From Candidatus Moraniibacteriota bacterium (lineage in GTDB: Bacteria; Patescibacteriota; Minisyncoccia; Moranbacterales; UBA1568), in the NCBI GenBank assembly GCA_008012175.1, contig SSEF01000025.1, positions 1-38,891 on the forward strand: 38,891 nt of DNA. Reading direction: 5' to 3'. The notes beneath the pieces are model-generated. The model did not search any database. It saw nothing but the letters and a program-made list of their open reading frames with translations, and was not told the origin of the DNA. The position numbers and the translations under genes were made by a program. Below, one piece after another: positions 14,465-37,195 of this stretch. How positions within the stretch are numbered: position 1 is the first letter of the stretch; every line of letters begins with the position of its first letter.

Positions 14465-15046
14465 TTACGATCGGTAGGCTGCGACACGGCTCGAGTACTT
14501 TTTCAAGTTCTGGAGCTGCTTGTCGGAGAGCTGCTTCGAGTGGTCGATGGCCTGGCGGATCATGTCCTTGGAAAATTCCGCAGACTGTCCGACGGCGAGC
14601 GGCCCACGTTCCTTGAGCTGCTTTCGGAGATAGTCCTCGACGTAGACCTTGTGTTCACCGGTAAGCGATGAATCCGGAGACTTCTCGAGATAGTTCGCGA
14701 GAGCGCGTCGGGCGAGGTGGGTTGTCCCATCGCCTTTGGTTGCGGTCTCAATAAACGAACCCTCAGTCTCGCGGCTCAGCTCTTTCGGAGTGGTTACGGT
14801 TTTCGACTGATCGTTGGCCTTTACGTCAGCCGTCTTGATCGAATCCATCGTTTCGGATTCCGTCGCGACGGTCATGTCGTCGGCGCTGTCGATAGTCTCG
14901 TCCGCACGCTGCGAGTAGGAGTAAATGCCGAGTGCGATCGCTGCTACGATAAAGAAGCTGACGATGACGCGGAGATTCTCCTGGAGCCAGGCTTTCGCCT
15001 GATCAGTGACACGTTCTTCTTCGTTCATGTTCATGTTTTCATCCAT
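14465..15046 (-). CDS. Membrane-anchored hypothetical protein
   Basis: MDENMNMNEEERVTDQAKAWLQENLRVIVSFFIVAAIALGIYSY. ATG at 15046 preceded by agagaggtgact. Confidence 0.7.
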   Translation of the reverse strand: MDENMNMNEEERVTDQAKAWLQENLRVIVSFFIVAAIALGIYSYSQRADETIDSADDMTVATESETMDSIKTADVKANDQSKTVTTPKELSRETEGSFIETATKGDGTTHLARRALANYLEKSPDSSLTGEHKVYVEDYLRKQLKERGPLAVGQSAEFSKDMIRQAIDHSKQLSDKQLQNLKKYSSRVAAYRS

Positions 15047-15165
15047 AAGAGTCACCTCTCTTCCTAGCTTTACAGATTATCTTGTGAATGTGCCGCTTGC
15101 GTTGAAGCTCCAATGGGAGCCCTTTTCCTTTGAGAAAAGAGCCTCATTCGCCCATTTCTTCCCTC

Positions 15166-15317: not shown

Positions 15318-15654
15318 GCGATGTGGAGCGTTATTTTTTCTTGCGAAATTTTTGATCGATGCATGAAGTGCATCATTGATTCAGGAATAAAAAAATTCGA
15401 GAGTAGTAAAAAATAATACGATCAATTTTTTTTTTAAAAAACTTACAGTGAGTAGTAGTCATAATCTGATCTGATAACGTTCGATGCTCTTGACATTTGT
15501 ACTATGCAAATTTTTCGAAAAGAGTATAATGAAAGTGTGTGAGAAACTTCACACGTGCGTGAAACAAAATTGTTTCACAAACAAAGAGAAAAATAACATC
15601 GTGACCGTAAACATACGGAAGCGAAAACAAAATTTTGGAAGGAGGTGACCTATC

Positions 15655-15741
15655 ATGGCAACAAAGAAAAAGAAGGTAGCCAAGAAGAAGAAGGTGACCA
15701 AGAAGAAGGCTGCTAAGAAGACCTCGAAGCGCCGCGCCTAA
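15655..15741 (+). CDS. 28-aa lysine-rich basic protein (MATKKKKVAKKKKVTKKKAAKKTSKRRA)
   Basis: Below the ORF-track cutoff. Strong SD ggaaggaggtgacc 4 nt before the ATG; followed by a perfect terminator hairpin. Confidence 0.8.
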   Translation: MATKKKKVAKKKKVTKKKAAKKTSKRRA

Positions 15742-15760: not shown

Positions 15761-15790
15761 ACAAAAGCTCCGCTTAGGCGGAGCTTTTGT
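15761..15790. terminator. Bidirectional terminator between the 28-aa gene (+) and prmC (-)
   Basis: Perfect 13-bp hairpin ACAAAAGCTCCGC-ttag-GCGGAGCTTTTGT. Confidence 0.85.
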
Positions 15791-16676
15791 TTTGTGTTTT
15801 TTCAATAACGCCGATGACGAGGCGGGATTTTCCGGCAAGGTCGGGGACGATCTCGAGCGATGAAAGCGTGGTGATATCAGCGAAGAGAGCAGGGAGTTTT
15901 TTTGCCTGTTCAGGGCTTATTTCAAGGAAAAAATTGACTCTTGCTCCCGCTCTATTGATAGCGCGGAGCTCGGCCACAAGGCGGCGATAGTGGTCGAGTC
16001 CGTCTTTCCCTGATACGAGCGCGCTCTTGGGCTCGTAGCGTTTCACATTCGGCGCCGCCGATCGGTAGATCGTGTCCGAAAGATAGGGGAGATTGGCGAG
16101 AACAAATAATTCATCGTAGCTCGTGAGTCGTTTCGATAGTCGCGCGAGCAGGTCGCTCTTCAGGAATCGGATCGTACTGATCTGCTGATGCTTCGCATTT
16201 TTGCGAGCAGAGCGGAGCGCAGCCGCTTCGCTATCGACTGCAAACCAAGAAATATTTTTTCGCACGACCGATGATCCGAGCGAGAGGAAAACGCTTTCTA
16301 TGATTGCGCCAGTACCCGTACCGACATCGATGACAGCGCATTTCTTTTTCGCGTGCGCGTGTTCTGAGATTTTTTTTATCGCGATATCGACCAGTAATTC
16401 CGTTTCCGGCCGCGGGATGAGGACGCCTGGACCGACGAAAAAATCTCGGCCATAGAATTCGCGCGTACCAGTGATGTAGGCGACCGGTTCATGCTTCATC
16501 GCGCGCGCGATGAATGCCCGATAGCGTCTCAATTGAGCGAGTGTCAATTTGGTTTCGCCATAGGCCATGAGAAAGACCCGATCTCGGCCGATCGCATGGG
16601 AAAGCAAGACCTCCCGGTCGAGCCGCGGGAGAGAGGGGGGGGGTTTGAGGGCTTCAGCGATGGTCAAATCCGGCAT
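15774..16676 (-). CDS. prmC: Peptide chain release factor N5-glutamine methyltransferase
   Basis: HemK-type motifs: YITGTREFYGRDFFVGPGVLIPRPETELLVD, VIDVGTGTGAI, ANLPYL. Lies downstream of prfA on the same strand. Confidence 0.88.
   Translation of the reverse strand: MPDLTIAEALKPPPSLPRLDREVLLSHAIGRDRVFLMAYGETKLTLAQLRRYRAFIARAMKHEPVAYITGTREFYGRDFFVGPGVLIPRPETELLVDIAIKKISEHAHAKKKCAVIDVGTGTGAIIESVFLSLGSSVVRKNISWFAVDSEAAALRSARKNAKHQQISTIRFLKSDLLARLSKRLTSYDELFVLANLPYLSDTIYRSAAPNVKRYEPKSALVSGKDGLDHYRRLVAELRAINRAGARVNFFLEISPEQAKKLPALFADITTLSSLEIVPDLAGKSRLVIGVIEKTQNKSSA

Positions 16677-35664: not shown

Positions 35665-37195
<1,531 letters not shown>

What the first reader, a model, noticed from the sequence alone, without database searches (positions are those of the whole stretch)
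15655..15741. Unannotated 28-aa lysine-rich protein (MATKKKKVAKKKKVTKKKAAKKTSKRRA)
More than half the residues are Lys/Arg, resembling histone H1/AlgP-type tails. It has one of the strongest SD sequences in the window, a dedicated intergenic leader and a perfect terminator, so it is probably an abundantly expressed stand-alone gene that length cutoffs miss. Plausible roles are nucleoid condensation, polyphosphate or RNA binding, or a ribosome-associated peptide.
Basis: partly seen in the sequence, partly recalled or inferred. Interest (0 to 1): 0.72.

Follow-up and report, generated by a model that had tools for sequence, protein, structure and literature searches.

The report
Conserved stand-alone lysine-rich mini-protein
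A 28-residue protein that is half lysine is a real gene, kept at the same chromosomal spot with its own structured RNA leader throughout one family of tiny uncultivated bacteria (Moranbacteria), and it most likely coats DNA or RNA the way the tail of histone H1 does.

Summary
ORF 15655-15741(+) encodes MATKKKKVAKKKKVTKKKAAKKTSKRRA (14 K, 2 R, no acidic residue). It has a 10/10 Shine-Dalgarno, the strongest in the window, and a 13-bp terminator. BLAST finds no homolog, but anchoring on prmC shows a K-rich ORF (23-64 aa) in 26 of 28 genomes of the family, including all 24 near-complete ones, nearly always convergent with prmC. Patterns find it in at least 69 of 132 genomes of the order. Fifty copies (2,244 residues) hold no acidic, aromatic or Cys residue. 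Lysine codon choice follows local GC while K+R content does not, so selection acts on the protein. New here: a conserved promoter region and a structured leader (about 125-155 nt) with covarying hairpins, the first at the predicted mRNA 5' end; in a congeneric contig the leader is nearly invariant (135 identical nt) while flanking DNA is 76-89% identical. HU is encoded separately without a lysine tail; PPK1 is absent. Best reading: a monocistronic, probably highly expressed polycation that works like a detached histone H1/Hc2 tail and compacts nucleic acid, most likely nucleoid DNA. Function is inferred, not shown. No Pfam or NCBIfam family matches.

The parts
15655..15741 (+). ORF for the 28-aa lysine-rich protein MATKKKKVAKKKKVTKKKAAKKTSKRRA
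   Evidence: relatives at the same locus; codon evidence
15639..15648 (+). Shine-Dalgarno AAGGAGGTGA, 6 nt before ATG
   Evidence: 10 consecutive matches; 5 or fewer at the other 25 gene starts checked; same motif in relatives
15531..15638 (+). structured 5' leader of the mRNA, three hairpins
   Evidence: fold z -3.8 and -4.5; RNA model R1 built from a different genus hits it at 49.9 bits; nearly invariant in congeneric contig C14
15537..15554 (+). hairpin 1 GTGTGAG-AAAC-TTCACAC, starts 6 nt after the -10 box, i.e. about the mRNA 5' end
   Evidence: hairpin near this position in 24 of 25 family genomes
15559..15578 (+). hairpin 2 GTGAAACA-AAAT-TGTTTCAC
15599..15624 (+). hairpin 3 (CCGTA-AACA-TACGG with outer stem)
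   Evidence: counterpart in genus g3 covaries
15525..15530 (+). TATAAT, probable -10 box
   Evidence: present (TATAAT, TATACT or TACAAT) in all 25 family genomes examined
15490..15495 (+). conserved TTGACA element 29 nt upstream of TATAAT (28-38 nt in relatives); not at canonical -35 spacing
15761..15790 (+). intrinsic terminator, overlapping the 3' end of convergent prmC
15774..16676 (-). convergent neighbour PrmC (release factor glutamine methyltransferase), the synteny anchor
   Evidence: Pfam PrmC_N 2.4e-15
14465..15055 (-). divergent neighbour, conserved protein of 196 aa with an apparent membrane segment and no Pfam match, the other synteny anchor

Best explanation
This is a genuine protein-coding gene of Moranbacteria (Patescibacteria). 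It makes a minimal, probably highly expressed polycation that behaves like a free-standing histone-H1/Hc2-type tail. Steps shown by computation: a conserved, monocistronic locus between a divergent 196-aa protein gene and convergent prmC; a conserved promoter region and structured leader with a hairpin at the predicted mRNA 5' end; a near-perfect SD; a terminator; and selection on a composition of Lys/Arg with small residues (mostly Ala, Val, Thr) with freely varying length. Steps inferred: the 5' hairpin and strong SD give a stable, heavily translated message; the peptide is disordered in solution; it binds nucleic-acid phosphates electrostatically and without sequence specificity; its main job is to help compact the nucleoid alongside the separate, tail-less HU protein. 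Variable repeat number would tune charge, not a fold.
For: Family: K-rich ORF in 26 of 28 genomes and all 24 near-complete ones; convergent with prmC in 24 of the 25 where both were placed (20 within about 0.4 kb). Order: strict pattern 45/132 genomes with no control hit, relaxed pattern 69/132 against 3 genomes with control hits. The same gene order (prmC convergent, 196-aa protein divergent) occurs in other families. 50 copies, 2,244 residues, 0 acidic, 0 aromatic, 0 Cys; AAG share of Lys codons follows flanking GC (rho 0.83, p 1e-13) while K+R share does not (rho -0.13, p 0.37). pN/pS 0.15-0.21 within six genera. Leader: covariation score reached by 0/500 shuffles and far above slid controls; 5'-most 44 nt mean fold z -3.3 against -0.3 upstream of the promoter; nearly invariant in a congener while flanks are 76-89% identical. 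HU present in 27 of 28 genomes and tail-less where read.
Against: No binding, expression or localisation data exist here. Composition alone cannot separate DNA from RNA, ribosome or membrane targets. Nearby genes on the chromosome are translation genes (prmC, prfA, rpmE, rpsB, tsf), which could hint at ribosomes, although they are not co-transcribed with it. Pairwise alignment of low-complexity repeats pushes pN/pS down. Some forms are only 10-14 aa, short for a chromatin protein. One order family (f10, 10 genomes) shows no copy by these patterns.
Confidence: 0.5

Rival explanations
1. The peptide is an RNA or ribosome-associated polycation (a non-universal ribosomal accessory peptide like bTHX, or an RNA counter-ion), not a DNA compactor.
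For: Very strong SD and structured leader; chromosomal neighbourhood of translation genes; Lys-rich peptides bind rRNA as well as DNA (general knowledge; chlamydial Hc2 is reported to bind RNA with higher affinity than Hc1, PMC2848022).
Against: Length ranges from about 13 to 104 aa in the order with no fixed residues, unlike ribosomal peptides that fill a defined site; not in an operon with ribosomal genes; no Pfam or NCBIfam ribosomal match.
Confidence: 0.25
2. A genetically encoded polycation that replaces polyamines as a general nucleic-acid counter-ion in a streamlined cell, binding DNA and RNA alike, with its level set by the leader RNA.
For: Composition of Lys/Arg plus small residues and freely varying length; similar tiny proteins in unrelated phyla.
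Against: Polyamine pathways were not tested here; most of these phyla are not streamlined.
Confidence: 0.12
3. The structured transcript is the functional product (a small RNA) and the ORF is secondary.
For: Leader is under strong constraint, nearly invariant between congeners, with covarying hairpins.
Against: Protein composition is held while codons drift with GC; SD and start codon are conserved; leader sequence changes largely between genera and families while the ORF stays.
Confidence: 0.05
4. Polyphosphate-binding protein, as AlgP associates with polyphosphate granules.
For: AlgP has a Lys-rich H1-like tail and localises to polyphosphate granules (PMC9239181).
Against: Polyphosphate kinase PF02503 absent from all 28 family genomes while 7 of 14 control genomes ring. 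PPK2 (PF03976) not tested.
Confidence: 0.03
5. Leader or attenuator peptide that senses lysine supply for a downstream gene.
For: A short Lys-run ORF with hairpins nearby recalls classical attenuators.
Against: It is followed by its own terminator and a convergent gene, so nothing is downstream to regulate; copies reach 104 aa.
Confidence: 0.01
6. Spurious ORF in a low-complexity stretch.
For: Very short and repetitive; no BLAST relatives.
Against: Conservation, synteny, codon behaviour and expression signals.
Confidence: 0.01

Closest known systems
Chlamydial Hc2 (HctB) and Bordetella BpH1 histone H1-like proteins
   Same: Lys with Ala/Val/Thr repeats; size variation through repeat number (PMC2848022)
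   Different: Hc2 is 165-237 aa with Lys/Arg pentamers and conserved flanking regions; here 23-64 aa in the family, KKxx tetrad spacing, nothing else in the protein; no Pfam HC2 match
Chlamydial Hc1 (HctA)
   Same: small, highly basic; subject to post-transcriptional control (sRNA IhtA acts at the hctA start codon, PMC8343073), a loose parallel to the conserved leader here
   Different: Hc1 has a conserved N-terminal dimerisation domain (PMC2848022); this protein has none
AlgP (AlgR3) and PhaF C-terminal KPAA tails
   Same: H1-like Lys/Ala tail thought to bind DNA (PMC9239181)
   Different: tail of a larger protein, Pro-rich repeat, linked to polyphosphate or PHA granules; here Pro is rare and PPK1 absent
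HU with a lysine-rich tail (mycobacterial HupB/MDP1)
   Same: same kind of basic disordered segment (own knowledge; abstracts)
   Different: here HU is separate and tail-less; the tail exists alone
bTHX (Thx) ribosomal peptide
   Same: about 25 aa and very basic (own knowledge)
   Different: Thx has a conserved, non-repetitive sequence (own knowledge); not compared by alignment here

Membership tests
Histone H1-like Hc2 (Pfam HC2) | match to the family profile | tested here: not met
   no HC2 or Hc1 hit up to E 10 for the window protein and three longer relatives (HMMER filters may drop weak low-complexity hits)
Histone H1-like Hc2 (Pfam HC2) | Lys-rich short tandem repeats with length variation | tested here: met
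   KKAV/KKVA/KKAT units, 23-64 aa in the family, to 104 aa in the order
Histone H1-like proteins in general | DNA binding and condensation | not testable with these tools
   needs gel shift or nucleoid imaging
Hc1 | conserved N-terminal dimerisation domain | tested here: not met
   no sequence besides the Lys-rich stretch
HU with lysine-rich tail | HU core fused to the basic tail | tested here: not met
   no HU core; HU is a separate tail-less gene
AlgP-type polyphosphate-associated protein | polyphosphate made in the cell (PPK1) | tested here: not met
   PF02503 absent in 28 of 28 genomes; PPK2 not tested
Leader/attenuator peptide | a regulated gene downstream on the same strand | tested here: not met
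   terminator then convergent prmC
Ribosomal peptide bTHX | conserved non-repetitive sequence at a fixed rRNA site | tested here: inconclusive
   length and sequence vary freely, against a fixed site; no ribosome data

The most novel reading that the evidence does not exclude
A previously undescribed class of stand-alone, gene-encoded polycations (about 10-130 aa; no acidic, aromatic or Cys residues in the Moranbacteria copies) replaces or complements chromatin proteins or polyamines as nucleic-acid counter-ion in many uncultivated phyla, and in Moranbacteria its level is set by a conserved structured leader RNA, possibly by the peptide binding its own message.
Probability: 0.15. Interest if true: 0.75.

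Novelty: new variant of a known kind. Interest (0 to 1): 0.52.

Why it matters
Genes this short and repetitive fall below annotation length cut-offs and are masked by low-complexity filters, so a conserved and probably abundant basic protein of a whole bacterial order may have gone unseen. A bare H1-like tail without any folded domain, with a conserved leader RNA, gives a simple test case for how bacteria compact nucleic acids in very small cells. The same anatomy in Planctomycetota, Omnitrophota, Rokubacteria and others suggests repeated use.

Tried and rejected
Plain BLAST of the 28-mer in relatives: no hit, misleading because of low complexity; anchoring on prmC and DNA patterns solved it. 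The first collection scan failed because the machine was busy and was repeated. Idea that the SD tracks a changed anti-SD: rejected, because relatives with SD variants AAGGAAGGTGA or AAGGATGGTGA have the canonical anti-SD; only the window's 16S differs. Polyphosphate role: disfavoured. Attenuator peptide: excluded by gene order. Pfam and NCBIfam: only weak chance-level matches. RNAalifold on the mixed g4+g6 leader alignment gave a poor consensus, so covariation rests on genus g3. Literature: no paper in the library joins Patescibacteria with lysine-rich nucleoid proteins or Moranbacteria with histones; the library is open-access only. No structure prediction was run, since a low-complexity peptide would give an uninformative model.

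Full report
OBSERVATION. The ORF at 15655-15741(+) exists as described. It encodes 14 Lys and 2 Arg in 28 residues and no acidic residue. The SD AAGGAGGTGA matches the canonical sequence over ten consecutive bases; the other 25 gene starts checked in the window reach five or fewer. A 13-bp terminator lies at 15761-15790. No ORF of 20-80 aa with at least 40% lysine appeared in 200 Markov-shuffled windows.

SETTING. Upstream and divergent is a 196-aa protein without a Pfam match; downstream and convergent is prmC, followed by prfA, rpmE (L31), rpsB and tsf (rpsB and tsf named from sequence).

CONSERVATION. BLAST with the peptide finds nothing. Reading the DNA next to prmC in relatives shows a K-rich ORF behind GGAGGTGA. 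It was placed in 25 family genomes and a 26th by pattern and RNA model (G041). The two genomes without it are 76% and 81% complete. In 24 of the 25 it is convergent with prmC, 20 within about 0.4 kb and four at about 1.1-1.8 kb. In the order, a strict SD-plus-Lys pattern hits 45 of 132 genomes with no hit of the reversed control; a relaxed one hits 69 of 132, control hits in 3 genomes. Of 30 order genomes negative by the strict pattern, 12 still carry a K-rich ORF near prmC. Both flanking genes are conserved around the ORF in several other families of the order, so this is one ancestral locus. Lengths run from about 13 to 104 aa.

SELECTION ON PROTEIN. Within six genera pN/pS is 0.15-0.21 with third-position excess in most; alignment of repeats biases this downwards, so an independent test was made. 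Over 50 copies the AAG share of lysine codons follows flanking GC (rho 0.83, p 1e-13) but the K+R share does not (rho -0.13, p 0.37), and 2,244 residues include no acidic, aromatic or cysteine residue. Copies were chosen for Lys above one third, which does not by itself exclude those residues. The copies are related by descent, so these p values are not from independent points.

LEADER. All 25 genomes share TTGACA, 28-38 nt of AT-rich DNA, a TATAAT-like box, and a leader of 123-155 nt. The leader folds into hairpins (window z -3.8 by tool; 25 of 25 genomes negative). In genus g3, the 24 pairs are kept in 95% of cells, seven pairs show two-sided changes, and the covariation score exceeds all 500 shuffles and every slid control. 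The first hairpin begins 2-8 nt after the -10 box, so at about the transcript's 5' end, in 24 of 25 genomes; the first 44 nt have mean z -3.3 against -0.3 for a control stretch. In the window itself this first hairpin alone is not significant (z -0.5). A covariance model built only from g3 finds this locus as best hit in nearly all family genomes, including the window at 49.9 bits, although part of that score comes from the SD and start region included in the model.

CONGENER. A second contig of the same assembly (C14) ends inside a second copy. The 135 nt from 15543 to 15677 are identical, while the neighbouring 196-aa gene is 89% identical, the DUF192 gene 76%, and the intergenic DNA 82% with many indels. 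The contig end may lie there because assembly graphs break in shared sequence, so this region was not sampled at random; the identity itself should be real. It also means the assembly mixes at least two related genomes.

OTHER PHYLA. Most encode 10-130 aa proteins such as MAKKKAAKKKVAKKK with near-perfect SDs, in Planctomycetota (many Phycisphaerae), Omnitrophota, Rokubacteria/Methylomirabilota, Nitrospirota, Brocadiales and Patescibacteria. The pattern fixes the start of the protein and the SD, so this shows existence, not frequency; outside the order only scattered Patescibacteria match (20 of 384 genomes drawn across the phylum). Common descent across phyla is not claimed.

FUNCTION. HU is present in 27 of 28 family genomes and ends without a lysine tail where read, so the basic segment is supplied in trans. 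PPK1 is absent from the family, which disfavours an AlgP-like polyphosphate role. No profile family matches. The best-supported mechanism is electrostatic, sequence-independent binding of nucleic acid, most likely to compact DNA, as for chlamydial Hc2 and the AlgP tail (PMC2848022, PMC9239181). RNA or ribosome binding is the main rival and cannot be excluded by sequence. The 5' hairpin, A-rich unpaired stretches and SD suggest a stable, heavily translated message; control of hctA translation by the sRNA IhtA (PMC8343073) is a loose precedent for post-transcriptional control of such proteins.

VERDICT. Real, conserved and probably important gene; a stand-alone variant of the H1-like tail theme; function inferred. 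Interest 0.52.

Noticed in passing
window 37186-37192 (16S rRNA 3' end): Anti-SD reads CACATCC (A at 37189) where relatives with a readable 16S 3' end and the second 16S fragment of the same assembly read CACCTCC. Either a sequence error or a real variant that would mismatch this gene's SD.
   Followed up: partly
G000 contigs C22 and C14: The assembly holds a second partial 16S (88% identical to the window's) and a second copy of the start of this locus at a contig end, so it mixes related organisms.
   Followed up: partly
window 15490-15530 and relatives: Conserved TTGACA lies 28-38 nt before TATAAT, not 17; the spacers fall near 28-29 or 35-38 nt, about one or two helical turns beyond the canonical spacing. 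Unexplained promoter layout.
   Followed up: partly
L037-L050 (another family of the order): The same gene has an unrelated long leader with a large stem such as CTCGCACCG...CGGTGCGAG, so the leader is replaced between families while the ORF stays.
   Followed up: no
L065-L183: Tiny MAKKK-type proteins with near-perfect SD in Planctomycetota, Omnitrophota, Rokubacteria and others.
   Followed up: partly
L068, L069, L083, L152: Two or three tiny Lys-rich ORFs close together, each with its own SD, about 90-170 nt apart.
   Followed up: no
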